This document shows positions 10,473 to 56,219 of a stretch of DNA of 64,000 bases, one piece after another. Source of the DNA: Bursaphelenchus xylophilus (taxonomy: Eukaryota; Nematoda; Chromadorea; Rhabditida; Aphelenchoididae). The DNA is taken from positions 2,108,001 through 2,172,000 of the forward strand of contig CAJFCV020000003.1 of the NCBI GenBank assembly GCA_904066235.2, written 5' to 3'. How positions within the stretch are numbered: the stretch's first letter is position 1; each line of letters opens with the position of its first letter. The translations under genes were made by a program, and so were the position numbers. The notes below the pieces were generated by a model. That model had not been told where the DNA came from. It saw only the letters and a program-made list of their open reading frames with translations, and searched no databases.

Positions 10473-11089
10473 CATCAGACGGCGTCGCGACACTTGCGGG
10501 CAACCACTTTGCGGGCAACCAGTTTGCGGGCAAATTTTTTGCGGGCAACCACTTTGCGGGCAAAATTTGGGGGGTCACATTTGCGGGCAGCTGAAACATT
10601 TGCGGGCAGCTGAGACACTTGCGGGCAGCCGACATTTGCGCGCAACCGGAACCTGAGGGTAACAGGGTGGAGGTGGAAATATTACTGCGATATTTTGGAA
10701 ATTTGCCGACATTTGCGGGCAGCCGACACTTGCGGGCAACAGGAAAAAACAATCACACAGACTGTATAGGAACTTTTGGAACTGTTGCCCGCAAATGTCG
10801 GCTTCCCGCAAGTATTGCCTGCCCGCAAATGCCGGAAATTTTCCTAAATATCGAAGTAATTTTTCCACGTCCATCCTGTTACCCTCACAATCAGGTGTCG
10901 GTTGCCCGCAAATGTCGGCTGCCCGCAAATCTTCCAGGCTGCCCGCATCTGTCGACCCTGCCCGCAAATGTCCCAGGCTGCCCGCAAATGCCGGTGCTGG
11001 CCGCAAATGTCGGCTGCCCGCAAAAAAATTGCCCGCAAACTGGTTGCCCGCAAAGTGGTTGCCCGCAAGTGTGCGCCCGCCCATCAGAC
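10473..11089. mobile_element. H1 foldback element of GCGGGCAA repeats with 8-bp target duplication
   Basis: The element itself is 10481-11081. CATCAGAC is duplicated directly outside it (10473-10480 and 11082-11089). The ends are inverted: GGCG followed by six to seven variable bases and then CACTTGCGGGCAACC. Both halves are made of a 12-16 base unit containing TTGCGGGCA, in one orientation on the left and the opposite on the right, around a centre near 10740-10785. There is no transposase. The 8-bp duplication is typical of hAT elements. The repeat unit lacks stop codons, so frames up to 188 codons stay open on both strands by composition and should not be read as genes. Confidence 0.9.
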
Positions 11090-11959
11090 TCTATTTTTCA
11101 TCACTTAAAATCGATAAAAATCAATTTCTGGGGCAAAAACTTCCAAAAATCGACAAAAATCGCGCATATTTTGAAACCCCCGTAAAACAGTAGTTGTAAT
11201 TCCTATGTAAAAAACCTTTTCACAGCTGAAACATCAACTCTTTAACTTTACAAAAACCAAAGATAGTCGCCACAACTCGCCCTTAACTTATTCCACCAAC
11301 GCTCGAAAGTCGCGGGCTCCGAGATCCGGCGAAAATTGCAGGGGCTTCCGAAAGCGGCCCCAAAAAACGTGACCACTCCCGATTCCTCGAATGCCCATTT
11401 CGGGCCGAGTACGAGGAGCGAGGCCCGAGGCACGGGACTTTCATTTTCACGTCAAGGCCACGAGTTTTTTTTGAGTTTTTCGTCCCGCAAAATTTTGCGG
11501 ATAAATGGATTTGGGGGGAGGGCGAAAACTGCGCAATTCCTCATTTACAACTTGGCCGCAAATGGCGAAAAAACGAGTTTTGAGGCCTTGCGGAGAAGCT
11601 TGGCTAATTAATTCGTGGCCAAAAGTTCGAAGAGATGTTTGGGAATTTCAGAAGAAATTTTTGAATTATTTAGGAATTTGGGGAAAAATTTTAAATTTTA
11701 ATGTGAAATGAGTGGTGTTGAAAGTGAAATTAAGAGAGAATAACAAATTTAAAAGTCAAATAAGAACGAAAAATTACAAAAATAATAAAAAAAACAAAAA
11801 AATTTTTTTTTGTTACAGTAACATTTTTTTTAATTTTGATAAAACACAAGTTAAATTTAAAATAGATTTTTATAAGACGTATCTGGGATTTTTAGTTCGT
11901 GTTTGACAGTAAGAAAATTTTAAAAAAATATGAAAAAAGTAAAAAAAAAATTTTTGTTT
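11090..11959. other. intergenic stretch, nothing recognised
   Basis: 11250-11620 is GC-normal with overlapping frames on both strands and no domain. After 11700 it becomes strongly AT-rich. Confidence 0.35.
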
Positions 11960-12480
11960 AAAAAAATTAAAAATCTCAAAAAATCCCTTAAAGAATCAAA
12001 AAGAAATGCAAAAAATGTTTTTTTTTTATTTTTAAATTTTTAAATTCAAAAAAAAATTAAAATTTTTTAATTTTTTAAAATTACAAAAACTTAAAAATCT
12101 CAAAAAAAATCGCTTAAAAAATCAAAAAGAAATGCAAAAAATGTTTTTTTTAATTTTTTAATTTTAAAAAAAAAAAAAAATTAAAATTTTTTAATTTTTG
12201 AAAATTAAAAAAAATTAAAAATCTCAAAAAAATCCCTTAAAGAATCAAAATGAAATGCAAAAAATGTTTTTTTTATTTTTTAATTTTTAAATTAAAAAAA
12301 ATTAAAATTTTTTAATTTTTTAAAATAAAAAAAAAATCTCAAAAAAATCTTTAAAATATTTTAAAAATTTTTTTTTCTTTTTTTTCGTTTTTTCATAAAC
12401 TCCTAAAAATTACTCAAAAATTAAAAAAATTTTTTAATTTTTAAATTTTTTAAATCTCCAAAAAATCCCTCAAAAATCAA
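11960..12480. repeat. AT-rich tandem repeat, about 120-bp unit, five copies
   Basis: The marker ATCTC followed by A runs recurs at 11973, 12097, 12221, 12336 and 12454. The first three intervals are 124, 124 and 115 bases. Each unit carries GAATCAAAANGAAATGC and then long T and A runs. It is simple-sequence-rich and non-coding. Confidence 0.8.
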
Positions 12481-12839
12481 AAAAAAAAGAAAAGAAATGG
12501 ATCCGTCATTCCTCTCGCCCCCGGGCCTGTTTCTCCATTTTCTCCGAGCGTTTTTTGCATGAGCTCTTACCCTCTTTCAAGAGGCCTCTCGAACCACATT
12601 TTGTTCATGTTTTGCATCCGTTCTGCCTCTGAAACCGAAGAAACTTTGTGAGATGCAGCAAACAAATCGTAGGGTAAACGCGCGATTTGACACGCAAAAC
12701 GCTGAATGGAGAGCAAATAAACAGAGGGGAAAGTGGATCAAACAGAGATTTGTTTTTTTGCAGTGGAAAAAAATGAAAAATTTTTTAAAAAAAGTGAAAA
12801 AAATAAAAAAAAAGTAAAAAAATTTCAAAAAGTTTCAAA

Positions 12840-13320
12840 AAAAAAAATCAAAAATTATTACGATAAAAAAGCAAAATTTTAATCATTAATCCCTCTAGCA
12901 ACACAAAAAAAATACGAAAAAATCAAAAAATTTAAAAAAAAATAAAAAAAAAATAAAAAAATTTCAAAAAACTTTAAAAAAAATGAAAAATTATTACTAT
13001 AAAAAAGCAAAATTTTAATCATTAATTCCTCTAGCAACACAAAAAATACAAAAAAATCAAAAAATTTCAAAAAAAAAAATAAAAAAAAAATAGAAAATTT
13101 CAAAAAAAAATCAAAAATTATAACGATAAAAAAGCAAAATTTTAATCAGAAATCCCTCTAAAAATACAAAAAAAAAATCAAAAAAATAGAAAAATTTCAA
13201 AAAAAAATTTAAAAAAAATAAAAAATTTCAAAAAAATAAAAAAAAAATCAAAAAAAAATACTATAAAAAAGCAAAATGTTGATCAAAAATTCCTCTAACA
13301 ATACAAAAAAATCAAAAAAA
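12840..13320. repeat. AT-rich tandem repeat, 126-138-bp unit, four copies
   Basis: GCAAAATTTTAATCA or a close variant recurs at 12871, 13007, 13133 and 13271, followed by TCCCTCTAGCAACAC or a variant. The rest of each unit is A-rich. It is unrelated in sequence to the array at 11960-12480. Confidence 0.8.
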
Positions 13321-14277
13321 TAGAAAAATCCCTCGATTATGAGCAAAAAAAATCCCATGAAAAACGTGCAAAACCCGTGACAAAACCCGGAAAAACATAG
13401 TAAAAAACACGGAAAAATATTGGACCTGCTCTCAAAAATGATGCAACAGGGAGAAGATGCAGCAAGGACACGCGAATTACCGTGTTTGTAAACAAAAAAC
13501 AGGCCACAGAGCATGTCGAGAATGGACTCTGAGAAGGTTAGAAAAAGGGTAATACAAGTTCAGGTCGTTTTTTCGAAAAATTGTCATGTGAAATTGGCTT
13601 TTTTGGGGGAAAAATAGGACAATCTCATGCGAAAGATCTCAGTTTTAGACGTGGTTTACTACAGTCACCTTGGTATATATATGGCATTTATACATATATA
13701 TAAATTACTTTGAAAGATGAGAAAACTTGAGCTTAAAAATGAGAAAAAATCCCAAAAATTAGTCATCATTTTCAGCTGGAAAAACGATGATATTTGTCGC
13801 CTGGGGCCGAAACAAAATAAATCAAAAAATCTGAGATTTGCACTTTGAGCAATTTCACTTTGAACAGTCAAACTGTCGGGAAAATAATGTGGATTTCTCT
13901 CAAGAAATTTCATACCGTCACAACGCGAAGATAGCCGATTCCAAGGCTCCAACATGAACTGCACAAAAAATTCAGGGTTCTGCAGCCCAAAAAACAATAA
14001 TGAACGGTGTAAAACATGTCGCCGAATTACTTCAGCGACTTTGCGAGCGGTTGCTGCCTTTCCACGGAATGTTTTCGTCTTCCTGTCCTTATTTTACCAT
14101 TCACCAAAAAAATGAATTTTTTGTTTACCCCTTCAGATCACTTGCTTCGAAATCTTTGACCATTGATTGATGACAACTCAAGGTTTTGTTGGAAAAATTT
14201 GCATAAAATTTGAGCGACAGATGGTCAGAATTTTACTTAAGACTTAATGACATAATTTTTCGGTCTTTTGGAAATGG
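13321..14277. other. intergenic stretch with a Q-family fragment
   Basis: CTGTCGGGAAAATAATGTGG at about 13872 is a lone left end of family Q followed by a decayed body. Otherwise no feature is supported. ATATATATGGCATTTATACA near 13675 is low complexity. Confidence 0.4.
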
Positions 14278-15350
14278 AAAATAATGTGGATTTGTCGCGG
14301 AAAAAAGAAAATGTCACCAAGTCGCAGCGGCGGACCAAATTTCCAGTTGGGGCTATTATTTTCCCGACAGACTGATATTTAATATCGATCCGTCGGAAAA
14401 ATAATGTGTATTTATCGTGACAAAGATTTGTGGTCTTGTTGCAACCATATCTTCAGCCGCGGCTTGCCATCCTACTAAAGCGATGATGGGCAATTCTAAA
14501 GCGCGACAAATCCATATTATTTTCCCGACAGATTGATATCAGTTTTGTCGGGAAAATAATGTAAATTTTTATCGCCTCCCCAGTCGCGGCTAGCCGTCGC
14601 AAAGCAATCATAAACGATTCCAAAGCGCGATGAATCCACATTATTTTCCCGACAGATTGATATCAGTCTGTCGGGAAAATAATGCAGATTTTTCGCAGCC
14701 AAATTTATCGCCTCTCCAGCCGCGGCTAGCATCCTACTAAAGCGATGATAAGCGATTCTAAAGCTCAGAAAATCCACATTATTTTCCCGACATATTGATA
14801 TCAGTCTGTCGGGAAAATAATGTAGATTTTTCGCATCCAAATTTATCATCTCTTCAGCCGCGGCTAGCCATCCTACTAACGCAATGATGGGCGATTCTAA
14901 AGCTTGACAAATCCACGTTATTTTCCCGACATAGTAATATCAGTCTGTCCGGAAAATAATGTAGATTTTTCGCATCCAAATTTATCATCTCTTCAGCCGC
15001 GGCTAGCCATCCTACTAACGCAATGATGGGCGATTCTAAAGCTTGACAAATCCCCATTATTTTCCCGACATAGTAATATCAGTCTGTCGGGAAAATAATG
15101 TAGATTTTTCGCATCCAAATTTATCATCTCTTCAGCCGCGGCTAGCCATCCTACTAACGCAATGATGGGCGATTCTAAAGCTTGACAAATCCACGTTATT
15201 TTCCCGACATAGTAATATCAGTCTGTCCGGAAAATAATGTAGATTTTTCGCATCCAAATTTATCATCTCTTCAGCCGCGGCTAGCCATCCTACTAAAGCA
15301 ATGATGGGCGATTCGAAAGCTCGACAAATCCACATTATCTTCCCGACAGA
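14278..15350. repeat. tandem array of family Q inverted-repeat units (eight copies)
   Basis: Eight consecutive units each begin with a version of CAGTCTGTCGGGAAAATAAT and end with its inverse, spaced by a few bases. The last starts fall at 14941, 15080 and 15219, exactly 139 bases apart. Copies at 14941 and 15219 share the variant GTCCGG and are preceded by CCACGTTATT, whereas the one between has GTCGGG and CCCCATTATT, so a 278-base two-unit block was duplicated. The unit interior carries CAGCCGCGGCTAGCCATCC. No coding function is seen. Confidence 0.9.
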
Positions 15351-16194
15351 CTAATAATAATAATAATGTCAGCAAAAAACTTTACTCGATCCTCTCTATG
15401 ACTTTCTCTGCCTTTATCAACCCCCTTTCGCTGTCAAAAAAAACAAAGTCGAAACCCCAAACATCATCGATGAATCATCAATTATATTGATCTGATGACA
15501 TCTTTTTTCTCTCTTTTTTCACTACCCGTTCACCTTCTCCAATTTCGAACAAAATAAAAGACAATTCAGGCCCCCTTAATGTTAGGTCCCCCCTAATGAT
15601 CCAATTTCGGAAATGGAATATTCGCGAAGGAGTGGAAAAGATCAATTTCCGAACTCCTGATAAAACGAAACATTTCGCCAATAAACAACGCAATCTCTGA
15701 AGAGCAAGAACCGCGGGCGTTGCATTTTTTGAGACTTCCAGTGTAGTTTCAATTTTTGTTGTGGAGAATTTGCTGATTGCTGATAAAAATAATCCAGATT
15801 ATTTTCCCGACAGACTATAAACAAGACGTGACAAATAAACTTTAGAGGCTTCTCCAAGGTAAAGCTATGCCAGAAAATGAAAACAATTTGAATTTGCGGC
15901 GACACAAGTCATTTTTTCATGCGATTTTCAAAGCCTCGGAGCGCTCACTATTTTCCCGACAGACTATAAATAAGACGTGAGATAGCGGCTTCTCCAAGGT
16001 AAAGCTATGCCTAGCGACAAGGCAAGAAATTTTGTCACAAGATATCTCGAAGGTAATCGCACAAAAACGTACTTCCGTAACGCAACCTCTATGCAAACAA
16101 CCAATCATACCGCGTTTATATGGGCAAACAGAATCAAAAGATCACTTCATACAAGTCTTTATACAAGTCATACTTTCTACAGTCAAGTCTGCAA
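15351..16194. other. intergenic stretch with broken family Q ends
   Basis: TTTTCCCGACAGACTATAAA occurs at about 15801 and 15951. Both are followed by AAGACGTGA and, a little later, GGCTTCTCCAAGGTAAAGC, so this part was duplicated. 15360-15780 shows nothing recognisable. Confidence 0.5.
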
Positions 16195-16319
16195 TGTCTG
16201 TCGGGAAAATATTAAACATAATTTCGCTGCAAAATGTCTCGCCTCGTCACAGACCGTCACAAAGCGAGGATAGGCGATTCCAACGCGCCAATCCACATTA
16301 TTTTCCCGACAAGTTGATA
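16195..16319. mobile_element. family Q element, GTGGATT-type
   Basis: The left end GTCTGTCGGGAAAATATTAA pairs with the right end ATTATTTTCCCGACAAGTTG. The interior has the GGCGATTCCAACGCGCCAATC form seen in other copies of this subtype. Confidence 0.8.
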
Positions 16320-16346
16320 ATCTACCAGCAAAAATCTTGCTTGATC

Positions 16347-16505
16347 TATCAGTCTGTCGGGAAAATTATGACACAATGTCGCTGCGCCGTTCGTGTCGCT
16401 AAAGTGAAAAGAAATTTGATTTTGTCGCAACACAATTAATTTTCCCGGCGGCGATGAGATTTTCGCTACGAAAGAGCGCTCATTATTTTTCCGACAGACT
16501 GGTAT
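16347..16505. mobile_element. family Q element, GAGCAC-type
   Basis: It runs from TATCAGTCTGTCGGG to CCGACAGACTGGTA. The interior carries ATGTCGCTGCGCCGTTCG and GGCGGCGATGAGATTTTCGC, which mark the second subtype of the family. Confidence 0.85.
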
Positions 16506-18715: not shown

Positions 18716-18779
18716 TCCCCATGTTTGCGCTAGCTGCCGTATTGAGGCACCGAAGAATAACTAGAATAACTAACCTCGG

Positions 18780-19140: not shown

Positions 19141-19223
19141 TTTGTACACAAGATAATATTTTACAGGAAAAAGTTCACAGATTTTATGGAAAAGAACTCC
19201 ATATACGACGCTCGGATTTTCTT

Positions 19224-19376: not shown

Positions 19377-19380
19377 TATA

Positions 19381-19532: not shown

Positions 19533-19584
19533 AGTTACAAGCCTTTTTTTGGAGTCCGCAGACTAAGAACAGATTCTCAGTTCA

Positions 19585-22126: not shown

Positions 22127-22165
<39 letters not shown>

Positions 22166-22542: not shown

Positions 22543-23092
22543 ATCAGCCTGTCGGGAAAATAGTGAGCACTTCGTTGCTTCAAAAATTATATCGTTGATG
22601 GCAGAGATTGCCACGGTCAAAATTTGGGCTCCGGCTCCGGCTCTTAGCTCCCAGAGCCGGAGCCGAGGCCAAATTTGCAGCTCCGGCTCCTGGCTCCCGG
22701 CTCCCATGAAAAACATAAAAAGGTCTGCGGCTCCGAATCCCGGCTCCCGTGCAAAATTTTTTTTTTAAATGTTTTTCCAAAAATAGACATTATTAGTGCC
22801 AGAGATCATACACCCAAGTTGTATGTAGCACATCCTTCCCAGTATTTTCCAAGCAACTTGGTTTAACAAGATCATGAAAATTTTACTTTTCTGAACGCTG
22901 AAAAGCCTGGCTCCGACTTTGAGCTTGGGAGCCGGCACCGCTCAGAGCCGGAGCCAAGAGCCGGCTCCGGAGCCGTGGCAATCTCTGGTTAAGAGAATGA
23001 ATTGTGTTGCGACAAGATAAAAAAATTTTTTCGCTTCAGCTACGCGATTAGCGTAACGACAAAGCGCTCATTATTTTCATGACAGACTGATA
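22543..23092. mobile_element. family Q element split by a nested H4 element
   Basis: The left part (22543-22601) begins ATCAGCCTGTCGGG and the right part (22988-23092) ends TTTTCATGACAGACTGATAG. Together they have the length and order of other GAGCAC-type copies. The intervening 386 bases are a separate element. Confidence 0.8.
22602..22987. mobile_element. H4 element of GGCTCC repeats
   Basis: CAGAGATTGCCACGG at the left and its inverse CCGTGGCAATCTCTG at the right are perfect 15-base terminal repeats. Next to them are arrays of GGCTCCGGCTCC and the inverse GGAGCCGGAGCC. The flanks GTTGATGG and GTTAAGAG agree at five of eight positions, which may be a decayed 8-bp target duplication. There is no open frame of note and no transposase. 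The element is inserted in a family Q copy. Confidence 0.85.
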
Positions 23093-24782: not shown

Positions 24783-25244
24783 TATCAACATGTCGGGAAA
24801 ATAATGTGGATTCTTTGCCTCAAAGTTATGCGATTTTCAATCCGACATTTCGCTCGTTATTTTCCCGACAGACTGATATTAGTACTTTCACAACAGTCTG
24901 TCGGGAAAATAATGTGGATTTTTCGGATTTTTTTTGCCTCAAAGTGAAGCGATTTTCAATCCCACATTGTGCACATTATTTTCCCGACAGACTGATATTG
25001 GTAAGGATATATTTTCATATCAGTATGTCGGGAAAATAATGTGGATTTTTGCCTGAAAGTTATGCGATTTTCAATCCGAAATTTTGCTCATTATTTTCCC
25101 GACAGACTGATATTATTGTCTTCATTTCAGTCTCTCGGGAAAATAATGTGGAATTTTCGCAGCAAAATGTCAAACCGTCGCAATGCGATGATTGGCGATT
25201 TCAACGCACAACAAATCCACATTATTTTCCCGACAGACTGATAC
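24783..25244. repeat. cluster of four family Q units
   Basis: Units lie at about 24783-24879, 24893-24998, 25018-25112 and 25128-25244. Each has inverted CTGTCGGGAAAATAATG ends. The first three share the interior AAAGTNATGCGATTTTCAAT, are only about 100 bases long and are separated by short AT-rich spacers. The fourth has a different, longer GTGGATT-type interior. Confidence 0.88.
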
Positions 25245-25996: not shown

Positions 25997-26820
25997 TATC
26001 AGTCTGTCGGGAAAATAATGAGCACACTATCGCTGCGAAAAAGAGAAAATAAAATTGCTACGGCTGAAGGTCTGGTGCCCAACTGAGGGGGAAATTTTAC
26101 AAATCCACATTATTTTCCCGACAGACTGATGTGAAAATACTAATATCAGTCTGTCGGGAAAATAATGAGCAAAATTTCGGATTGAAAATCGCATCACTTT
26201 GAGACAAAAAATCCACATTATTTTCCCGACAGACTGATGTGAAAATATGTACCTACTAACATCAGTCTGTCGGGAAAATAACGAGCGAAATGTCGAATTG
26301 AAAATCGCTTCATTTTGAGGCAAAAAATCCACATTATTTTCCCGACAGACTGATGTGAAAATACTAATATCGGTCTGTCGGGAAAATAACGAGCGAAATG
26401 TCGGATTGAAAATCGCTTCACTTTGAGACAAAAAATCCATATTATTTTCCCGACAGACTGATATGAAAATATGTACCTACTAATATCAGTCTGTCGGGAA
26501 AATAACGAGCGAAATGTCGGATCAAAAATCGCATAACTATAAGGCAAAAAATCCATATTATTTTCCCGACAGACTGATATGAAAATATGTACCTACTAAT
26601 ATCAGTCTGTCGGGAAAATAGTGAGCAAAATGAAAAATTCATTTTCTCTGCGGCAATGCGATTTTCAAAGCGACAGAGTGCTCATTATTTTCCCGACAGA
26701 CTGATATTAGTAAGTATATGTTTTCACATCAGTCTGTCGGGAAAATAATGTGGATTTTTACCTCAAACTGATACGATTTTCAATCCGGCATTGCGCTCAT
26801 TATTTTCCCGACAAACTGAT
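25997..26820. repeat. tandem array of seven short family Q units
   Basis: Left ends fall at about 25997, 26144, 26260, 26369, 26484, 26600 and 26727. Each unit has inverted ends, a core with GATTGAAAATCGC or its inverse, and a spacer such as GTGAAAATATGTACCTACTA that is repeated with the unit. The shared spacer shows that the units spread by tandem duplication, not by separate insertions. Confidence 0.92.
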
Positions 26821-32275: not shown

Positions 32276-32400
32276 TTTCAAAATGGGGGAGTGTTCAAAA
32301 AGGGGGAGACTTCAGATTTTTTGGTGAAAATCAAAAAGGGGGGAGAGTTCAGGCTCAACCCAAAATTTGGCGAAAATCTGAGCGTCGAACTTTGAACGCC
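32276..32400. mobile_element. right end of a satellite-foldback element nested in family S
   Basis: GGGGGAGTGTTCAAAAAGGG and GGGAGAGTTCAGGCTCAACC match the ends of the complete element at 35989-37642. The following AATCTGAGCGTCGAACTTTG is a family S right end. Confidence 0.7.
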
Positions 32401-34796: not shown

Positions 34797-35387
34797 TATT
34801 AATATAAAATGAAAATCTTAAATTTTTCTTCCACTATAGCTGTCTCAAGTCGAAATTGAGACCCACTTACAGAATAACAAGTTAGAAAGTTGCGCGGGGG
34901 GAGCAAAGTTTCTCGTCGAAAACAACATTTCGAATTTGCGACAACCACAAAAACATCCGAAAACCCGTTTGGCGAAAAAAAAGAGGGAAGGTTGTTTTGG
35001 GAACTCGCGGGGAAACTTTGTTCCATTTTGACTTGGGCCTGCTGCAAAGACAACTTTCAGTGGGGTCTTTGTTTTGAAAGAATAACAAAATTGCAAAAAA
35101 AAAGATTACGAATCGTACGTGACGAAAAATATTAGTTACAAACGGATTTTGTTCAGCCTAAAATCAAACCCAGATACTTCTGAAATGGTCTGTCAAAGAC
35201 AGGTTATCTAGTAGTGGAGTTCCCTGTACTGCATTAAAGAAAAAAGAATTTTAATCGACCAGGCCAATTTTTTGCTCAAAGGAGACAGTATCTACATATC
35301 TACAACCTCGTATTTTACAAATAACAAATTGAATCTTTTATAAAACGACCCTGACTATGTACATTTATAATATAACCCACGGGTCTT

Positions 35388-35870
35388 TGGTAGTTCAGCC
35401 CCCACGGCAACCCAGGGAGTCTCCTGCCTCGTTTTGGCGCTTCGCCCACCTAGTATCGGTTGAATTCAAACGAAATGTCAAAAATGAATTTTTCGTGTGG
35501 TTTTCCGACCGAAAAATATTTTTCTCGGGATTATTTTATTTCTTTTGTGAATTTTGACACTTCGTTTGGACGAAATTCAAAAGTGGGCGGGAGACATTTT
35601 TGTTCCATTTGGGTTGCCCTGAGCCTGCGCATTTCACACCCCCCATAATGAAAAAATTAGAATAATACAAAAAATGCAAATTAGAGTAAAGCGACCCCCG
35701 GCGTTTTAGCTCAAACCCCCAGTTACCGTCCAAGTTCGTTCTTGTGGTTCAGGCAACGATGATCGTAGCCGAGAGAACCCAATCACAAGTAGGCGGTTCA
35801 GCTTGGATGAGGGGGTTTATACTGGGTCATGGGGGGGGCTGAACTGGACTGGGGGGTTGTACTACCTTAG
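35388..35870. mobile_element. H3 element, diverged copy
   Basis: GTCTTTGGTAGTTCAGCCCC on the left and the inverse TTGTACTACCTTAGCC on the right are the ends. The interior has AGAATAATACAAAAAATGCA and GCGTTTTAGCTCAAACCCCC as in the copy at 51349. No target duplication can be read with confidence. Confidence 0.8.
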
Positions 35871-36334
35871 CCATAAGACATTTCAACCGTTGTACGAAAA
35901 ACACCACTATAACCATAAAAAACATTTTAGAAGCCATTCTGCTTACAGGGGAAGTAGTCCAAGTGCGACGCTCAGATTTTGATAAAACGGTTGAACCTGA
36001 ACTCTACCCCTTTTCTGAACTTTACCCCTTTTTCAACTCTACCCCTTTTTGAACTTTACCCCTTCAGAACTTTACCCCTTTTTCAACTCTACCCCTTGAA
36101 TGAACTTTACCCCTTTTTGAACACTACCCCTCATTTTGAAAATTGAAAAAATGAGGTGTGACACCTTATACGATGAAAATTTTTTTCAAATTGAAAATAA
36201 TCAGGTGTGACATCTTATACGATGAAATTTTTTTTTCAAATTGAAAATAATAAGGTGTGACATCTTATACGATGAAAATTTTTTCAAATTGAAAAAACTA
36301 GGCGTGACATCTTATACGATGAAAAATTTTTTCA

Positions 36335-36926
36335 CAAGGAAAGTACTTTTATGGGGGCTCCTACTTTTTGACGGGACATATCTCAAAAAATCAGAAAAAA
36401 TGTGCTGATCAAGGATATATAAATCCTAGCTGCCCATTTTAGGTTTTTAGGGGTGAAAATGCCCAAAAACTGGCTTAATTTCCCTACAAAAAGCGCAGGC
36501 ATTCGAAACGATAAAAAGCGCAGTCGGTCTCTTCCTTCGGAAGAGAGCGGTGTGGCCGAGTGGCTAGTGCCGTAGTCTGGGAATCAAGAGAGAGGACGCC
36601 GCACGGGTTCGATTTCCCTTTTGGGCTGAATCAACTTTTTTTGAAGTTGAAGGTCGGCAAAATAAATTTTTGTGCCAAGACTGATTTATTACGTCTTAGA
36701 AACTCAATAAACATAATTTAAGCCAAAATAAAAATTGTAAACCTGTGAAAAATCAAGCGAAAAGGGGTTCATATAGGGCTTTAAGTCATCTTCCGATTGA
36801 GTTTTCACCCCTAAAAACCTAAAATGGGCAGCTAAGATTTATATATCCTTGATCAGCACATTTTTTCTGATTTTTTGAGATATGTCCCGTCAAAAAGTAG
36901 GAGCCCCCATAAAAGTACTTTCCTTG
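36335..36926. mobile_element. family T element with tRNA-like head, TCA target duplication
   Basis: The same perfect ends as at 31114 are flanked by TCA on both sides (36332-36334 and 36927-36929). The insertion sits inside a satellite unit, at TTTTTTCAAATTGA, so the empty site can be read from neighbouring units. With the TAA and TTA copies this shows a TNA target preference. Confidence 0.93.
36546..36622 (+). pseudogene. tRNA-like sequence inside the family T element
   Basis: TGGCCGAGTGG (36553-36563) and GGTTCGATTTC (36606-36616) are intact A and B boxes. Aligned to class II tRNAs, the anticodon loop would read CTGGGAA, i.e. GGG, but the supporting stem is broken. The T stem pairs at four of five positions including one G-T pair. 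I treat it as non-functional. Confidence 0.62.
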
Positions 36927-36929
36927 TCA

Positions 36930-37490
36930 AATTGAAAATAATAAGGTGTGATATCTTATACGATGAAAATTTTTTTCAAATTGAGAAAAATCAGGTGTGA
37001 CATCTTATACGATGTAAAATTTTTTCAAATTGAAAAAACTAGGTGTGACATCTTATACGATGAAAATTTGTGTGACACCTTATTATTTTCAATTTGAAAA
37101 AAAATTTCATCGTATAAGATGTCACACCTCATTATTTTCAATTTGAAAAAAAATTTCATCGTATAAGATGTCACACCTGATTATTTTCAATTTGAAAAAA
37201 ATTTTCATCGTATAAGATGTCACACCTCATTATTTTCAATTTGAAAAAAAATTTCATCGTATAAGATGTCACACCTGATTATTTTCAATTTGAAAAAAAT
37301 TTTCATCGTATAAGATGTCACACCTCATTATTTTCAATTTGAAAAAATTTTTCATCGTATAAGGTGTCACACCTTATTATTTTCAATTTGAAAAAATTTT
37401 CATCGTATAAGATGTCACACCTGATTTTTCTCAATTTGAAAAAATTTTTCATCGTATAAGATGTCACACCTTATTTTTTCAATTTTCAAA
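36930..37490. repeat. GATGTCACAC satellite array, copy 2
   Basis: Three forward units are followed by about nine inverted units of CATCGTATAAGATGTCACAC with TTATTTTCAATTTGAAAAAA spacers. Neighbouring inverted units are nearly identical and alternate between CCTCATTATT and CCTGATTATT, a two-unit period. Confidence 0.9.
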
Positions 37491-38042
37491 ATGGGGTAGT
37501 GTTCAAAAAGGGGTAGAGTTCAGATTTTTTGGCGAAAATCAAAAAAGGGGTAGAGTTCAGCCTTTTTTGGGGTAGAGTTGAAAAAGGGGTAAAGTTCAGA
37601 TTGGGGTAAAGTTCAGAAAAGGGGTAGAGTTCTGCCGCAACGTGATAAAACTTGGCACAAATTTAGAATAATTTTTTCTAATATATGCCAGAATATTAGG
37701 TCGCGTTTTGCAGAAACAACCAAGATTTTTAAAGTCGGCGAAAATTTAGGACTTTTTGCCGAATTTCGGCACGAAAAGTTTCATGCCTATTTCTATCGTA
37801 AAGGATAATGTTTCTACAAAAAATCAAAATTTTCCGCACGAAACAGCCAAAGTTATGGCCAAAAAGCGCTTTTCTCTCTGGCCGCTCTCCGCGTACTCTC
37901 TCGGCGGCAAAAATCGTTCGATATCTCGACGGCGTCCGCAAAGCGCGAGCTAAAACTTTCAGGAATTGATATTCAGTCCATACCCGACGTGTGTGCAAAG
38001 TTTAAAGAAAATCTGAGCGTCGCACTTGGAGTACTTGCCCTG

Positions 38043-46791: not shown

Positions 46792-47159
46792 GGGGCTTCG
46801 GTAGTTCAGCCCCCCAGGAAAGGTAGTTCAAACCCCCACTGTTTTGCCCGTTTCACACCCCACATAATGAACAAATTAGAATAATACAAAAAATGTAAGT
46901 GGGGGTTTGATCTACTACGTTGGGGGTTTGATCTAAAACGTAGGGGGCTTGACCTAGAACGTAGGGCGCTTTTTCTAAAACGTAGGGGGCTTTTTCTAAA
47001 ACGGAGGGGGCTTCATCTAAAACGTTGTGCTGGACCATACAACTTGGATTAATTCTTTGAAATAAATTTTGGGGTTGAGAATGGACGAGGGGGGGTTGTA
47101 CTGGGTCATGGGGGGCTAAACTGGACTGGGGGGCTGTACTACCTTAGCCCCGGTAGCTC
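46784..47159. mobile_element. H3 element with 8-bp target duplication
   Basis: The element is 46792-47151. GGTAGCTC lies directly outside both ends (46784-46791 and 47152-47159). The inverted ends are GGGGCTTCGGTAGTTCAGCC and GGGGCTAAGGTAGTACAGCC. The interior iterates a GGGGGYTTGATCTAAAACGT-like unit about six times (46896-47025). There is no transposase. The 8-bp duplication suits the hAT group. Confidence 0.92.
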
Positions 47160-47651: not shown

Positions 47652-48024
47652 ATCTGGAGTAAACATGGCTGCAAACCGGGCCAGCCCGGCCCGGGACCGG
47701 ACTTGGAAAATTTGGAAAGCCCGGCCCGGTTCGACCCGGAAAATTTTTATACTAGGTTGGAAAGAAAGAACGCGGGAAATAAAAGGAAAATTATGGCAAA
47801 TTTTCGCAAAATGTAAAGAAAATTTTAGCAAAACCTAGGTACATAAGGTCACTTTACTACTTAGTACGTTCGCTATCAGCAGTGTGTTCGAAAAAATGAA
47901 AAATTGTATCGAAAAAGCTTATTTTTTCCTTCTTTTCGAGCAAAACTCAGATTTCAAACAAACCGGGCCGGCCCGGGCCGGAAAATGTTGCAAAGCCCGG
48001 CCCGGAGCCACGCATAATCTGGAG
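47652..48024. mobile_element. H2 element of GGCCCGG repeats with 8-bp target duplication
   Basis: The element is 47660-48016 and ATCTGGAG repeats exactly on both sides (47652-47659 and 48017-48024). The ends TAAACATGGCT and, inverted, TATGCGTGGCT lead into GGGCCGGCCCGG-type repeats that face each other around an AT-rich middle. It is non-coding. Confidence 0.9.
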
Positions 48025-48900: not shown

Positions 48901-48986
48901 GGACCTTGTACTAGACAACAGCTCAAAAAAAAGTTTTTGATCCCTCCCCAAAGAATCGGGGGCGGCAGATCACCGCTCCATCGCAG

Positions 48987-49199: not shown

Positions 49200-49430
49200 G
49201 GAAATCACGTAGAATTTTGGAAAAACTGACAAATTCCGGGAATAGAGGGGTATAAGTACTAAAAAACGCTGATAAAATATAAAAAATCATTATTTTAGAC
49301 AAAACCAGAAGCATGTTTAGGAGGTGGAGGATACTGTCGCACCCGTACGATAAAAGTTCTTGACCAAAAAATGATTTCCAGACGGCTTTAATGCCTCTTT
49401 TCTTTTTTGTGACCGCAACGCAAACTTTTT

Positions 49431-49559
49431 ATGGCGTCTACGAAAAGGTCAACGAATAATAGTACGTTGGACGGATCAAAAGGCGGGATCTCGAAATGGC
49501 AACACGTGGCAGACAGTGTAGTTGGAATTGGAAGCGTTTGGGACACGGTGGAATTCCAG
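49431..49559 (+). pseudogene. short open frame interrupted by the M1 transposon
   Basis: An ATG at 49431 opens 43 codons up to the TA where the M1 element inserted (49560). If the element is removed the frame continues across the TA for 13 more codons to TAA, giving about 56 residues. The part before the insertion is serine-, threonine- and glycine-rich. No family is recognised. The continuity of the frame at the empty site is suggestive only, as 13 open codons are not rare by chance. Confidence 0.2.
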
Positions 49560-50485
49560 TACAGGGTGGGCCACTCGAAGCTGACAAGTTGGTTCTTTGA
49601 ATTTCTCCGCCGAGACTCCGCCGATTTTTCTAAAATTTAGATTTTTCTGGAGCTGAGACCCGCCATTTTCAATCGACTGAATTTTAAAAAAACATATTTT
49701 AAATTGACCTTTCCATGCCCTCTCAAAGTTTTGAAAAATTATTTTCAGGCCGAAACCGCTAAAACTTAGAAAATTTTTGGAATGATTTTCAATTGTCTTT
49801 CTCGGACTTGGAAAATTTTTGGTTTTTTTTACGGAAATCGCGGTGTAAAAAGTTGCTAGTGCTCGCCTTAAACTTGTTTAAAGAAACTTGAAAGCCACAA
49901 GAGGGTTGTTTACCATTCACGAAAATTCAAAAAAAAAAAAAAAGATTTCAAAAAGATTGAAAAATTCGACGTCAATGGTTATCGAGTCAGGCCTGGGGCA
50001 TCTAGAAGCTCAAAACCCGGCCTGATTGAAGTTTTAACTTTAAAAACCATATCCACGATACGCAATTCTAGCTGCGCATGACTCTCAAAGGCACTGCAAG
50101 TTTGTGATGTTAGAGGAGGTGGGCATAATAACTCAGAAAGAAGCATTAATAATCATATTGTTAAATAAAATTGTTTTTGGAACAATATATGACAACTATC
50201 TGAGGTAAAACAACGAAAATTTCACCCAAAAACTCGGAAAAATGACCAACTTTTCAAAATCATTCCAAAAATTTTCTAAGTTTTAGCGGTTTCGGCCTGC
50301 AAATATTTTTTCAAGACTTTGAGAAGGCATGGAAAGGTCAATTCAAAATATATTTTTTTGAAATTCAGTCGATTGAAAATGGCGGGTCTCAGCTCCAGAG
50401 AAATCTAAATTTTAGAAAAATCGGCGGAGTCTCCGCGGAGAAATTCAAAGAAACAACTTGTCAGTTTCGAGTGGCCCACCCTGTA
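49560..50485. mobile_element. M1 long-inverted-repeat element with TA target duplication
   Basis: The element is 49562-50483 between TA dinucleotides. The ends CAGGGTGGGCCACTCGAA and the inverse extend about 235 bases each (to roughly 49795 and from 50250) with few mismatches, for example GAATTTCTCCGCCGAGACTC against its inverse. The 450-bp middle is AT-rich without a transposase. TA flanks and CAGGG ends suit a Tc1/mariner-type non-autonomous element. Confidence 0.92.
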
Positions 50486-50559
50486 TGACAAATCGCAAGC
50501 GACCGAAAAATTTTGCTCTTCCTAAGCGAGATGTTGTTTTCTTATCCAAAAAAGATTTA

Positions 50560-50995
50560 CAACACTCGTATTTTCTTTAAATTTTGCACAAATATCAGGC
50601 ATAGGCTACATATCAATTCCTGAAAATTTTAGCCAACGCTTTGCAGGGAGAACCGAGATATCCAACGATCTTTGCAGCCGAGAGAGCACGCGAAACGCGG
50701 AGAGCGGTCAGAGAGGAAACACGTTTTGGCCGTATCTTTGCCATTCTCGTGCGGAAAAAATTGATTTTTTTGTGGAAACATTTCTCTTTACAGTAGGAAT
50801 AGACATGAAACTTTTAATACCAAAATTCGCAAAAAACGTGTCGCATTGTTGCCAACTTTTGATCTAAAAATCTCAATCATTTCTTCAAAGCGCGAGCCAA
50901 TGTTAAGATGACGCTTTGGCATCAAAAGCTTTACGTCTATTTCCCCCGTTGAGAATAAAATTGCCCCCAAAAATCAATTTTTTCCGCGAAACTTA
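50560..50995. mobile_element. family S remnant
   Basis: CATATCAATTCCTGAAAATT, GCAGCCGAGAGAGCACGCGA and CTCAATCATTTCTTCAAAGC follow the family order in the inverse orientation. The right part is cut by the next element. Confidence 0.65.
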
Positions 50996-51297
50996 CAAGG
51001 AAAGTACCCCTTTTTGGCACGAAAAGTTTCATGCCTATTTCAACCGTAAAGGATAATGTTTCTACAAAAAATCAAATTTTTCCGCACGAAGCTGGTAAAG
51101 ATACGGCGAAAAAGTGTTTTTCTCTGACCGCTCTCCGCATTTCGTGTGCTCTCTCGACCGCAAAGATCGTTGAATATCTTGGCTCTCCCTGCAAAGCGCG
51201 AGCCAAAACTTTCAGGAATTGATATGTGAACTATGCCCAATACCTGTGCAAAATGTAAAGAAAACCTGAGCGTCGCGCTTGCGGAGACTTTCCTTTG
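50996..51297. mobile_element. shortened family S element
   Basis: CAAGGAAAGTACCCC jumps straight to TTTTTGGCACGAAAAGTTTC, so about 150 bases of the left arm are missing. The core and right arm (GAGCGTCGCGCTTGCGGAGA) are intact. Confidence 0.75.
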
Positions 51298-51340
51298 TCA
51301 ATTTGACGATTTTGACGCCTAGCCTTCGAAAATTGGATAG

Positions 51341-51644
51341 TTCCTTTTGGGGCGTTGGTAGTTCAGCCCCCCATGAAAGGTAGTTCAAACCCCCATTGTT
51401 TTGTCGGTTTCACACCCCCCGTAATTAAAAAATTAGAATAATACAAAAAATGCAAATTAGGGTAAAATGACCCCCGGCGTTTAAGCTGGAACCCCCAGTT
51501 ACCGTCCAAATTCGTTCTTGTGGTTCAGGCGTAGCCGAGAGAACCCAATCCCGAGTAGGCGCTTCACATTGGATGAGGGGGCTTATACTGGGTCATGGGG
51601 GGCTGAACTGGACTGGAGGGTTGTACTACCTTAGCCTTCCTTTT
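51341..51644. mobile_element. H3 element with 8-bp target duplication
   Basis: The element is 51349-51636. TTCCTTTT repeats outside both ends (51341-51348 and 51637-51644). The left end GGGGCGTTGGTAGTTCAGCC and the inverted right end GGCTAAGGTAGTACAACC match the copy at 46792. The interior shares GGTCATGGGGGGCTGAACTG with the other two copies. Confidence 0.9.
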
Positions 51645-52540
51645 TCTGAATCTGTAGTTTTTGCTCCATCCATCGGAGATGGTTATGACTCCAGACGCCA
51701 AATTGCAGGGGTACTTCCCTTGTAAGTTTCACCGGTTTTTGGCTCCATAATTTTGATGAAAATGTCAAAGGTCAGAACGAAGGCCTCTATGAACTTGGTC
51801 CCGTCTTATTTCTTGGGCAAAAAATGGGGTGTCTCATCTTGAATTTGATGTAAATTTTATAGGAATTGGTGCATTATTGCCTGAGAAATACTTAAAATAA
51901 GTGTGGAAGCTCCGGCTGAACCACCCTGTAATATATGTACCTACTTTTCGGAACTCATTTTTCTTGCAAAAAACCCCAAAACTTGTCACAAGTCTGACCA
52001 CAAGTCCCACTTCTAACCCCTATTCAAACATTGGTCACTTTGACACCTCTCTCTTTCCAAAATCTCTTATGCAAATTCCCTCCGTTCTTTAATCCGCTTT
52101 AAAAGTTTTTCCCCTCGCCGCTAGACGTCTCGAGGTGTGCAAACTCGTAGACTATTTATTGCAAAGGTCATTCAAATAAATGAAATTCGAAAGGATGCTT
52201 CAAAAGAAGTTGCTGGTTTTGAAAAAAAACGGCGACGGAAAGTTCAAAGGACAATGGCCAGCTACTGTAGGAAAAGCATGGGAATTCTTGGAGGTCAATA
52301 GAAATGGTTGCAACGCGAACGAGAATAGAAAATTGGAAAGATCGAAGAGGGTAAAAAGCAGTTGCAATTGTCAGGGAATTTTTGGCTTCAAAAAAATGTT
52401 AGTATTTAATTACATACAGGAGAGATAAAATCTCAATTTTTATGGAACTAAAGGCAAATAGCGGTTACAATCTTCAACGACAAACAAGATTTCCAACCAC
52501 CAGTGATGCCAAGATGATTTTCAAGCCGAAACTAAAGGAA
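51645..52540. other. unique stretch, nothing recognised
   Basis: GCTGAACCACCCTGTAATAT at 51913 resembles a mariner-like right end without a partner. 52180-52430 holds a short plus frame with no domain. Confidence 0.4.
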
Positions 52541-54380
52541 ATATCGTATAATGTTTCAACAAAAAAGCAATGTTTTTCGACAACACTGGCAGAGACGGAC
52601 AAAAAAGTTTTTTTCTCTCGTCCTCCGCGTTCCGCGTACTCTCTCGGCCGCAAAGAACATTGAATATCTCGGCTGCTCCTGCAAAGGGCAAGCAAAAATT
52701 TTCAGGAATTGATATGTGGCTCCTGCCAAACGTGTGGGCAAAATTTAAGGAGACATGTAATTGGGGACGAAACCCGAAAAAAAAATCAATTTTTTACCAT
52801 ATAAGAAGGGTGCGTTATATTATTCCAAAAAGTTTCAAACTTACTTCATTTTTAGCCTACATGAAATTTTGTGGCCTACTTCAAAATCTGGTCTGCCTAG
52901 GTGAAAAAATTTCATGTGGGCCAAAAAAAAATTATTTTTTTTTTGGCATAGGTGGTTTCTTTTCATGTGGGCGAAAAAAAAATTTTTTTTTTTGGCATAG
53001 GTGGTTTCTTTTCATGTGGGCGAAAAAAATTTTTTTTTTTTTTGGCATATCAGTCTGTCGGGAAAATAACGGCGGATCGTCGCGCCTCGGAATCGCCCAT
53101 CATCGCTTTGCGACGGCGAAGTTTGTGATCTCAGAAATTGGAAAGATGAAGAAATGGAAGTAGGCTAAAACCGAGATTTTGGCCTAGTTCATGCAGTCGG
53201 TGAAGATGTAGGCCAAAACCGAGATTTTGGGTTTTCGCCTAGTTGATTAAATCGAAGTTGACTAAATCGAACTAGGCCAAAACCATGATTTTCGCCTACT
53301 TCCTGCCCGCTTGGATAACTAAGCCAAATCCACGTTTCCGCCCAGATCATAGAAAATCCTAAAACAGGTGGAGTTATATATCCAAAAATTCGCAAAATTT
53401 TTCTGATTCAGAATATGTAAAAATTTGCTGCCTAATTTTGGTTTGTAAGGGTGAAAAATTCCTCAAAGCTTTTCTCGCAACACCATGAAAATGCGTTTTT
53501 GACCAAGTTTTTACCAAATCAAATGCTTGAAAAAACATTGCGAAATCAACAACTTGTTTACCAATAGGACGCCTCTTGAACAGAATGCCAAATAATTATT
53601 TTCGTGCCGTGACGCGAAATTGCTGTGGGCAAGACACATTTATCCATTGAATTTTTATTTTCTTATTGGTAAAAACTTGGTCAAAAAGGCATTTTCATGG
53701 TGTTGCGAGAAAAGGTTTGAGGAATTTTTCACCCTTTCAAACCAAAATTAGTCAACAAATTTTTACATATTCTGAATCAGAAAAATTTTGCGAATTTTTG
53801 GATATATAACTCCACCTGTTTTAGGATTTTCTATGATCTGGGCGGAAACGTGGATTTGGCTTAGTTCATCCAAGCGGGTAGGAAGTAGGCGAAAATCATG
53901 GTTTTGGCCTAGTTCGATTTAATCAACTTCGATTTAATCAACTAGGCCAAAACCCAAAATCTCGGTTTTGGCCTACATCTTCACCGACTGCATGAACTAG
54001 GCCAAAATCTCGGTTTTAGCCTACTTCCATTTCTTCATCTTTCCAATTTCTGAGATCACAAACTTCGCCGTCGCAAAGTGATGATGGGCGATTCCGAGGC
54101 GCGACGATCCGCCATTGCTTTCCCGACAGACTGATATATGAAAAAAAAACCACCTATGCCAAAAAAAAAAAAAAATTCGCCCACATGAAAAAAAACCACC
54201 TATGCCAAAAAAAAATAATTTTTTTTTGCCTAGATTAAAAAAAAACAAAAATTTCATGTAGGCTAAAAATGAAGTAAGTTTGAAACTTTTTGGAATCATA
54301 TAACGCACCCTTCTTATATCCGACTAAAAATTCTTGGTGGTTTCTGCAAAGCGCACGCTAAGCATCTCGAAAATTAATTT
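52541..54380. mobile_element. family S copy split by a 1.5-kb foldback
   Basis: 52541-52760 (GCAAAGGGCAAGC, TCAGGAATTGATATGTGGCT) and 54323-54380 (ATTCTTGGTGGTTTCTGCAA) are family S halves on either side of the foldback. The flanks do not show an exact target duplication. Confidence 0.6.
52799..54319. repeat. 1.5-kb foldback with about 700-bp arms
   Basis: ATATAAGAAGGGTGCGTTAT at the left is the inverse of the right end. The arms match through CCTACATGAAATTTT, the CATGTGGGCGAAAAAAA blocks, a Q end (53048 and 54128), ATGAAGAAATGGAAGTAGGC, GGATATATAACTCCACCTGT (as read on the right arm) and GACCAAGTTTTTACC, up to about 53515 and from about 53665. The loop of 150 bases is unique. The left arm is about 65 bases longer because of an extra GGTGGTTTCTTTTCATGTGG unit. 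No coding frame is convincing. Confidence 0.9.
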
Positions 54381-55670
54381 GAAAATAGTGATTTTAATTT
54401 TGGACTCATCACAATAGAAAAATTAAAGTTTTTTAATCAAAAAACAGGAATTTTTGCTTCGGAAGTCACATTTCCCCCTCAAAATGACTGTTACTGTCCC
54501 TCGGCTGGCACAAATTCGAACAATGTAAAATGGACGATGCCGTAAACAAGCCATAAAGAAGAGAACTGACTGTTTTCGGAATGGACATTTGGCTCGATTC
54601 CAGCACAAATCGCCCTCCTTTCTCCTGAATGTCAGCTGACTTCGGAGGCGCGCTCTTTTTTCGAAAAACCGACGACCGCGCGCTTCATACCGTATTTTAT
54701 GGAAAAGCGGGAATAGAAAAAACGCGGAGGGGATATTGAATATTCAAATGGGAAGGTTGCCAAAACATTGAAGTGGGGGAAAAATAAAAAAAAATAAAAA
54801 AATATGAAAATATTCAAAAGAGAAAAAAACGCAAGTTAAAGGCAGCATTTTCAAAGACTATTTTATATATATATATTTTAGCTCGCGCTTTTTTTGATAT
54901 TCGCTTCTTTGGACTCTAAATGGCAGTATTTTTATGCGTTTTTCTTTGCTTCATTCCTTGTACCAGCTTTTCCAAAAGACTCGCTGTAATCGCCGTTCTT
55001 ACGAGCAATTTTTTTGAAAAATCGCTGTATTTGCTGTTGATGACCTTGCAAATGGCAAAAGTGTTGCCGCTGCGTCTTTCACTTCCCAGACGTTTACTGT
55101 TGATGTCAAGCTACTTGCATTGTGTGATTACTTTCGACACAACGTCCTTTCTATACTGAGCAAGTTAACAATTCGAACAGCTCCAAAAAAGGTCCAAAAT
55201 CGAGGTCTCTCTGTTTGACATTCAAAAAAACCATGCTAAATATTCGGTATGACCATGAAAGTCACAGTACTAGGACAGAAAAACACGGAGAATTTAATGG
55301 TAGCAGAACCATTTGGCTATACGTTAACATTTTTGCGCCAGGACGCATGAAAGAAAGTTTCCGTTTTTTCTTGCCACCCTTTATGTAGTAGAGATCAGAC
55401 CGTTTCAAGTTTGCGTTTTTTTATGAAATCGGCGTTATTCGTGAGCAGGGTGTGCCTGGAAATTTTAGCTCCCGCTTACAAATTGTTAGGAAGCACCAAG
55501 TAAAATACGATAAGGCAAAAAATAATCCTTTTCATACATATCTTTGCGAATTTCGTTTGGAAAAAATTATTTTTTTTTTTTTTGGAAATAATGTTCTAGG
55601 TATTGTATATATACTGTAGACAAAGGCAAAACATTATTCTTTGAAAAGAATTTTTAGGGCAACACTCTGT
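54381..55670. other. intergenic stretch, nothing recognised
   Basis: A plus frame at 54920-55159 begins with a hydrophobic, signal-like stretch, but the sequence before it (TAGCTCGCGCTTTTTTTGAT) is a family S relic and there are no splice signals, so I do not call a gene. TATATATATAT lies at 54866. Confidence 0.4.
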
Positions 55671-56219
55671 GTTAGAAATAGACTTGGCTGCCGGGCTGGG
55701 CCGGGCCGGGCCAAAGCAAAATTGAAACGGGCCGGGCCGGCCCGGCAAAATTAAAATTTTGAATTTCAAAGCGGAAAGTTGGATTGCCAATAAAATTAAA
55801 ACGCAAAGCCAAGAATGGGGTTTATATCTTTCTCCCAGTAAGCATAATTTTATAAAAATAAAGCACGGAAGTACTCAAAAATGGCTAATAATAAGTAATT
55901 TTACTAGTAAAATCTATTGAATACTAATGTATATCAGTGTTTGTTGTAATTTTTTGAACAAACACTCAAAATATGTAAACGTAACTGACATCCTTAAAAA
56001 CACAATTAAGAAGTCGTGTGAAGCAACACTATCATCTGGAAGTTGAAAATCTTGATAAACGTGGTTCCACCTTTGCTGAATCTATAAAATTAATCTTGGG
56101 GCAATTTTTAATAGTCTGAAAACGGATCTCGGGAATTTTTTGATTAATTTTTAACCGGCCCACGGGCCGGGCCGCGTTTTTCGGCCCGGGCCGACCCGAG
56201 AGCCAAGTCTGGTTAGAAA
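55671..56219. mobile_element. H2 element of GGGCCGG repeats with 8-bp target duplication
   Basis: The element is 55679-56211. GTTAGAAA repeats outside both ends (55671-55678 and 56212-56219). The inverted ends are TAGACTTGGCTGCCGGG and CAGACTTGGCTCTCGGG. GGGCCGGGCCGG arrays follow at each end, facing each other, and the middle is AT-rich. It shares ends and motif with the copy at 47660. Confidence 0.92.

What the first reader, a model, noticed from the sequence alone, without database searches (positions are those of the whole stretch)
10473..56219. A possible common class: short-iterated-motif elements with 8-9-bp target duplications
Five unrelated-looking families (GCGGGCAA, GGCCCGG, GGCTCC, GGTAGTTCAGCCCC and the CCCCTTTTTGAAC satellite foldback) share one plan: short unique ends, then arrays of a short motif in opposite orientation on the two sides, no coding capacity, and 8- or 9-bp duplications. 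My inference is that one or a few hAT- or Mutator-like transposases mobilise elements in which sub-terminal binding sites have been amplified, and that this plan has arisen repeatedly in this genome. This is the most novel pattern in the window.
Basis: inference. Interest (0 to 1): 0.75.

Follow-up and report, generated by a model that had tools for sequence, protein, structure and literature searches.

The report
Small transposons with repeated binding motifs
The window, apparently from the pine wood nematode, holds five families of small, non-coding jumping elements whose ends carry many copies of a short motif and which duplicate 8 bases on insertion; one family is tied to a hAT transposase, and the overall plan is already known from other nematodes and insects.

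Summary
The window lies in what appears to be Bursaphelenchus xylophilus. The five families are real, repeated, non-coding DNA transposons. Perfect 8-bp duplications flank 22/26 (A, GCGGGCAA), 19/25 (B, GGCTCC), 12/12 (C, GGCCCGG), 7/7 (D, GGTAGTTCAGCCCC) and 5/7 (E, satellite) of the copies read with both ends; none has 9, and shuffled flanks give none. Mirror-image arrays hold for A and E, mostly for B, weakly for D, not for C. C is hAT: a copy at C5:9106723-9107713 has 8-bp duplications, the same 11-bp left end as a window copy, GGCCC motifs at both ends and broken hAT transposase code; other transposase loci agree. B has hAT-like ends and target choice but no transposase copy was found. 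A, D and E have other ends, and A and D other target preferences, so more than one transposase is likely; none was found for them. The plan is known: hAT subterminal repeats, and Mutator foldbacks (Muta1; Tm1 of root-knot nematodes), for which independent origins have already been proposed. Ordinary kind, locally striking.

The parts
10481..11081 (.). Family A (GCGGGCAA) element; 8-bp duplications CATCAGAC at 10473-10480 and 11082-11089; 10 GCGGGCA forward in the left half, 11 reverse in the right half; unlike ends GGCGTCGCG / GGCGGGCGC
22602..22987 (.). Family B (GGCTCC) element; both ends CAGAGATTGCCACGG; flanking 8-mers GTTGATGG/GTTAAGAG agree at 5 of 8
55679..56211 (.). Family C (GGCCCGG) element; ends TAGACTTGGCT / CAGACTTGGCT; 8-bp duplications GTTAGAAA at 55671-55678 and 56212-56219
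47660..48016 (.). Family C, second subfamily; ends TAAACATGGCT / TATGCGTGGCT, the left one identical over 11 bp to the transposase-bearing copy at C5:9106723; 8-bp duplications ATCTGGAG at 47652-47659 and 48017-48024
46792..47151 (+). Family D (GGTAGTTCAGCCCC) element; ends GGGGCTTC / GGGGCTAA; 8-bp duplications GGTAGCTC
51349..51636 (+). Family D element; 8-bp duplications TTCCTTTT; right end lacks the outer two bases seen in other copies
35381..35880 (+). Family D copy with a changed left end and other internal sequence; no duplication found; borders approximate
35988..37642 (+). Family E satellite foldback; left array 35998-36131, right array 37485-37632, 49-bp satellite inside; ends CGGTTGAACC / CGTTGCGGC; 8-bp duplications TGATAAAA
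36330..36931 (.). Separate inverted repeat (130-bp arms, 98% complementary) inside the family E copy
32277..32358 (.). Fragment with a family E-like end and array, seen by eye; partner end not found

Best explanation
The five families are non-autonomous cut-and-paste DNA transposons moved by at least two, probably three or more, different transposases that make 8-bp staggered cuts. Family C is made of shortened relatives of a hAT transposon; its GGCCC motifs are the subterminal repeats that a hAT transposase is expected to bind in addition to the tips. Family B is most likely hAT as well. A, D and E have foldback-type composite ends (short end motifs that differ between the two ends, then iterated subterminal motifs; weak in D) and a transposase not identified here. 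Shown: repetition, ends, 8-bp duplications, arrays, and the link of C to hAT. Inferred: the number of transposases; that the motifs are transposase binding sites; that array length changes by slippage or unequal exchange; that the present elements were mobilised in trans by enzymes of which mostly relics remain.
For: 8-bp duplications in all five families. hAT C-terminal domain at C5:3637953 (62 bits), similar to Hermes in the PDB (E 8.3e-9), with a GGCCCGG array about 210 bp after the stop; a second copy at C5:9107141 is 86.6% identical over 574 bp including the array, so the array belongs to the transposon; the array is 80.7% identical over 114 bp to arrays of family C copies L076, L075, L073 and L070. 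The second copy is bounded by TAAACATGGCT ends and GTCTCGGG duplications. C1:14728773 has a left end TAGACATGGCTCCCGGGCCGGGCC joined to the transposase 3' end. Target choice among perfect duplications, both strands pooled: B G-T-T with T at position 2 in 32 of 38; C G at position 1 in 17 of 24; D A at position 2 in 12 of 14; A T at positions 3 and 4 in 22 and 24 of 44. Literature: hAT transposases bind subterminal repeats (Hermes, PMC10368747, passages; Herves, PMC3143072, abstract and discussion).
Against: No transposase was linked to A, B, D or E. The copies read are those best matching the window (A, B), some of the best (C, E) or the first listed (D), so they are biased; D and E target counts rest on 7 and 5 copies. 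Family C ends lack the G at position 5 that I recall for hAT. Only one transposase-bearing C copy has both ends, and it is broken. A peptide inside family C that looked like a zinc-finger remnant to the eye is not recognised by Pfam. Binding was not tested.
Confidence: 0.72

Rival explanations
1. A, D and E are Mutator-type foldback elements like Tm1 of Meloidogyne and Muta1 of Aedes, moved by a MULE transposase.
For: Similar architecture: short end motifs that differ between the two ends, then tandem motifs of about 15-17 bp in mirror image (A, E); compare PMC3169594 and PMC5225508 (passages and one section each read). By eye, E's left end CGGTTGAA resembles Tm1 motif A1 CGGTTAA. MULE domains exist in this genome (3 hits).
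Against: Tm1 duplications are mostly 9 bp (8-10) and Muta1's are 8 or 9; here 34 of 40 A, D and E copies with both ends have perfect 8-bp and 0 have 9-bp duplications. The one MULE locus read (C5:368900-372460) is split into several open pieces and shows none of the five families' arrays or ends. The other two MULE loci were not read.
Confidence: 0.35
2. A and D are moved by Merlin transposases: their tips begin with GG and they duplicate 8 bp, as Merlin elements do.
For: PMC8101967 (passages read): conserved terminal 5'-GG and 8- or 9-bp duplications. Three Merlin domains in this genome, one in an open frame of 374 codons, stop to stop.
Against: In the three loci read (2.5-3 kb each) no pair of GG tips with exact 8- or 9-bp duplications was found, and A or D motifs occur at most once. 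E does not begin with GG.
Confidence: 0.2
3. One hAT transposase moves all five families.
For: All have 8-bp duplications, and hAT transposases use subterminal repeats.
Against: Five different ends and motifs, and different target preferences for A, B/C and D.
Confidence: 0.05
4. The arrays are satellites or chance low-complexity repeats, not parts of transposons.
For: Family E contains a 49-bp satellite array; motifs are short.
Against: Sharp ends and perfect duplications at unrelated sites; shuffles give none.
Confidence: 0.01

Closest known systems
Tm1 Mutator/Foldback family of root-knot nematodes (PMC3169594)
   Same: Nematode of the same suborder (Tylenchina; for Meloidogyne recalled); short end motifs that differ between the two ends, then variable numbers of about 14-bp tandem motifs in inverted arms; mostly non-coding copies
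   Different: Duplications mostly 9 bp; other motif; a Phantom-type transposase is known; here 8 bp and no transposase for A, D, E
Muta1 and other Aedes MULE families (PMC5225508)
   Same: Terminal motif plus 9-15-bp subterminal tandem repeats, hundreds of non-coding derivatives, 8-9-bp duplications
   Different: Mutator transposase with both 8- and 9-bp duplications; family C here is hAT
hAT elements with subterminal repeats: Hermes (PMC10368747), Herves (PMC3143072), Ac, Tol2, Tag1
   Same: Short tips and several short motifs near the ends that the transposase binds (as stated in those papers); 8-bp duplications (for hAT recalled)
   Different: The 12 fetched family C copies have 23-37 motifs each, where Hermes has five in the first 55 bp of each end; binding unproven here
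Merlin (PMC8101967)
   Same: 5'-GG tips and 8-9-bp duplications, as in A and D
   Different: No transposase copy with A or D ends found in three loci read

Membership tests
hAT (family C) | 8-bp target duplications | tested here: met
   12 of 12 fetched copies with both ends (of 14 fetched), plus both window copies
hAT (family C) | hAT transposase inside the same ends | tested here: met
   C5:9106723-9107713, ends TAAACATGGCT, 8-bp duplications, broken hAT C-terminal code; supported by C5:3637575 and C1:14728773
hAT (family C) | Tip pattern with A at 2 and G at 5 (recalled) | tested here: inconclusive
   TAGAC / TAAAC: A at 2 met, G at 5 not
hAT (family C) | Subterminal motifs bound by the transposase | not testable with these tools
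   Motifs are present at both ends; binding needs an assay
hAT (family B) | 8-bp duplications with T at 2 and A at 7 (preference recalled) | tested here: met
   19 of 25 perfect; among 20 with at least 7 of 8, T at 2 in 16 and A at 7 in 18
hAT (family B) | Tip with A at 2 and G at 5 (recalled) | tested here: met
   CAGAG at both ends in 13 of 15 copies listed
hAT (family B) | Transposase-bearing copy | tested here: inconclusive
   Four hAT domains genome-wide; the B end motif was not found in the hAT loci read, L083-L085 and L094-L096
Mutator foldback / Tm1 type (A, D, E) | Composite ends: unlike short tips, then tandem subterminal motifs in inverted arms | tested here: met
   A and E clearly, D weakly
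Mutator foldback / Tm1 type (A, D, E) | Duplications of mostly 9 bp (8-10) | tested here: not met
   A 22/26, D 7/7, E 5/7 perfect at 8; 0 at 9
Mutator foldback / Tm1 type (A, D, E) | MULE transposase inside the same ends | tested here: inconclusive
   3 MULE hits, 1 read, no such ends
Merlin (A, D) | 5'-GG tips and 8- or 9-bp duplications | tested here: met
   definition from PMC8101967
Merlin (A, D) | IS1595-type transposase inside the same ends | tested here: inconclusive
   Three loci read, no matching ends or arrays; ends further out, and other copies, not excluded

The most novel reading that the evidence does not exclude
In one small nematode genome, at least three unrelated 8-bp-cutting transposases have each independently produced families in which iterated subterminal motifs have multiplied, up to ten or more copies per end in the largest, and these families outnumber and have largely outlived their transposase genes. 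That would make motif iteration a recurrent, selected outcome of competition among non-coding elements for transposase.
Probability: 0.45. Interest if true: 0.5.

Novelty: new member of a known kind. Interest (0 to 1): 0.35.

Why it matters
It gives sharp ends, target sites and, for one family, the transposase class for five repeated element families of the pine wood nematode. A 2024 survey (PMC11118728, passages read) reports DNA/HAT as absent from the Bursaphelenchus and Aphelenchoides lineage, though another passage lists hAT among recent activity in B. xylophilus; the hAT relics and their dependants found here show that hAT was present. Five families side by side in one genome are a workable test bed for whether motif iteration is selected in non-coding elements.

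Tried and rejected
Merlin: three transposase loci compared with each other and scanned for duplications with inverted tips; nothing matching A, D or E. Mutator: 3 MULE domains; one locus read, no arrays. KDZ and P-type domains: 0 matches, but the control genomes were silent too, so absence is not shown. BED zinc fingers: 5 in the genome, none at a family C place listed. A possible zinc-finger remnant inside family C (seen by eye in three copies) was dropped after Pfam gave no such domain in the two pieces searched. A phage search with family A found nothing. ARAGORN found no tRNA in the window. Amplification only in non-coding copies: the complete transposase-bearing copy has 9 GGCCC on both strands, the 12 fetched non-coding copies 23-37 and the window copies 11 and 7; but the transposase locus at C5:3637575 has a dense array at its one visible end, so this is not claimed. 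A comparison of motif number with copy number across families was not done: five points and capped copy counts would not support it.

Samples and dropped rows: A and B are the 30 best-scoring places each of 40 scored; C is 14 of 40 scored places; D is the first 8 places listed of 121 motif matches, plus 3 copies in the window; E is 15 of 40 scored places plus the window copy. Copies without both ends by my patterns were dropped: A 4 of 30 loci; B 6 of 30 loci (one locus gave two pairs); C 2 of 14; D 4 of 11; E 9 of 16. For A, pairs were sought only with unlike tips; one search then showed the first tip type at one end in 28 of 30 loci and at both ends of an element in none, but its pattern for the second tip type matched nothing, so copies with the second type at both ends were not tested. 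One search used subsets: A 16, B 15, C 12 plus two window copies and the transposase copy, D 7, E 4; two window C copies were cut one to three bases off their exact ends there.

Full report
What was examined. The window is G000:C3:2108001-2172000 of a 78.25-Mb genome in 8 contigs. A hAT-domain protein of Bursaphelenchus xylophilus in the protein database lies on a contig of 12,633,386 bp, the length of C5 here, and a Merlin protein of the same species is 100% identical over 75% of a query from this genome. I therefore take the host to be the pine wood nematode.

Observation. All five motif families are present at the stated places. I mapped ends by comparing copies from across the genome and asked, without assuming a length, whether the bases outside the two ends repeat. 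Perfect repeats occur at 8 bp and at no other length from 4 to 12: A 22 of 26, B 19 of 25, C 12 of 12, D 7 of 7, E 4 of 5; with ten more E places fetched, E is 5 of 7. Shuffling the right flanks 2000 times gave no match in any family. The window copies agree, except B, whose flanks match at 5 of 8, and one of the three D copies, for which no duplication was found.

Some misses are informative. In locus L054 two B elements in opposite orientation, 137 bp apart, lack duplications of their own, but the left flank of the first is the exact reverse complement of the left flank of the second, and the same holds for the right flanks. This is what an inversion by recombination between the two elements leaves behind. 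One A miss (L012) becomes a perfect duplication if one extra base at the left end is allowed.

Ends. A: GGCGTCGCG at one end and GGCGGGCGC at the other; the first type was found in 28 of 30 loci, and at both ends of one element in none (the reverse case was not tested). B: CAGAGATTGCCACGG at both. C: TAGACTTGGCT at both, with a subfamily TAAACATGGCT / TATGCGTGGCT at 47660-48016. D: GGGGCTTT or GGGGCTTC at one and GGGGCTAA at the other. E: CGGTTGAACC or TGGTTGAACC at one and CGTTGCGGC at the other.

Arrays. Counted by half and strand: A 198 forward and 6 reverse on the left, 4 and 193 on the right (16 copies); E 25 and 0, 0 and 24 (4 copies); B 73 and 29, 21 and 76 (15 copies); D 13 and 7, 2 and 8 (7 copies). 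In the 12 fetched C copies the bias is the same on both sides, so C does not follow the mirror-image plan; its motif is close to its own reverse complement. The shared plan is therefore looser than described.

Family C and hAT. A profile search for the hAT C-terminal domain gave four places in the whole genome. The best, C5:3637575-3638198, resembles Hermes (E 8.3e-9). About 210 bp after its stop codon lies a GGCCCGG array. A second copy of the same gene end, C5:9107141-9107382 (broken by stops), is 86.6% identical over 574 bp that include the array, so the array is part of the transposon; the array of the first locus is 80.7% identical over 114 bp to arrays of four family C copies. Reading outward, the second copy is a 991-bp element, C5:9106723-9107713, with ends TAAACATGGCTCC and TAAACATGGCTCG, GGCCC motifs at both ends and duplications GTCTCGGG. 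Its left 11 bases are those of the window element at 47660. A third locus, C1:14728773, has the left end TAGACATGGCTCCCGGGCCGGGCC, between the two subfamilies in sequence, joined to the transposase 3' end. A fourth, C3:713529, encodes a distant hAT piece (28% identity; domain just below the cut-off) close to GGGCCGGGC motifs. I conclude that family C is hAT.

Family B. Its tip CAGAG and its target site (G-T-T on each strand; T at position 2 in 32 of 38) are those I recall for hAT. No transposase copy was found.

Families A, D, E. Their tips lack the hAT pattern that I recall. D inserts at sites rich in A then T (A at position 2 in 12 of 14), A favours T at positions 3 and 4; both differ from B and C, though D rests on 7 copies. 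E has too few copies to say. A and D begin with GG, as Merlin elements do (PMC8101967, passages read), but in three Merlin loci read no such ends were found. A and E have the composite ends of foldback elements. In Tm1 of root-knot nematodes (PMC3169594; abstract, passages and the section on TIR motifs read) unlike 7-bp tips are followed by about 14-bp tandem motifs, with mostly 9-bp duplications and a Mutator-type transposase. In Aedes, ten of twelve MULE families with long ends have 9-15-bp subterminal tandem repeats, with 8-9-bp duplications (PMC5225508, passages and one section read). The one MULE locus of three that I read has no such ends. The constant 8 bp here speaks mildly against Mutator. 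The class of A, D and E stays open.

How it works. By analogy with Hermes and Herves (PMC10368747 passages; PMC3143072 abstract and discussion), a hAT transposase holds its transposon at short subterminal motifs besides the tips. The arrays are most simply read as such sites, multiplied by slippage or unequal exchange; elements without a gene that bind transposase well would spread at the expense of the coding copies. The copies, ends and duplications are shown; binding and competition are inferred.

Novelty. Iterated subterminal motifs, foldback ends, 8-bp duplications and non-coding dependants are all known. PMC3169594 already states that foldback-like elements are not necessarily related, since different transposases lie within such ends, and cites proposals that they evolved independently. 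The paper searches that I made listed no paper on these particular families, but they cover open-access papers only and two lists were cut (15 of 20, 15 of 181). I rate this as new members of a known kind, with some interest in the side-by-side occurrence of what are probably several enzyme systems.

Noticed in passing
L054:990-1927 (G000:C2, near 11534430): Two family B elements in opposite orientation whose flanking 8-mers are swapped as reverse complements: the footprint of an inversion of the 137 bp between them.
   Followed up: yes
L087:958-2079 (G000:C4:7517694): Merlin-type transposase in an open frame of 374 codons (stop to stop) with no terminal repeats found; eight best relatives outside the species, in unnamed records, are 43-57% identical. 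Possibly a domesticated gene, or its ends lie outside the stretch read.
   Followed up: partly
L084 (G000:C6:8296244-8298488): A BED zinc finger and a hAT C-terminal domain about 2 kb apart on one strand, with none of the five families' end motifs in the 4.3 kb read; may be a host gene derived from hAT.
   Followed up: partly
L086:2037-2600 (G000:C4): Open frame of 188 codons beside a broken Merlin copy that by eye reads like a family-B DNA polymerase of a Maverick-type element; not searched.
   Followed up: no
window 53035-54149 and 49560-50485: Long inverted repeats with 95-98% complementary arms of 201-282 bp; other large hairpin elements in the window.
   Followed up: no
window 14446-15356, 24931-25157 and 26101-26632: Tandem arrays with 115-139-bp units containing the inverted motif TTATTTTCCCGACA...TGTCGGGAAAATAA, which by eye also recurs singly in the window and in fetched loci.
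   Followed up: no
window 36330-36931: Inverted repeat inside the family E copy whose centre (about 36545-36625) looks tRNA-like by eye; ARAGORN called no tRNA.
   Followed up: partly
window 58562-59100: 139-bp tandem repeat of about four copies, not part of the five families.
   Followed up: no
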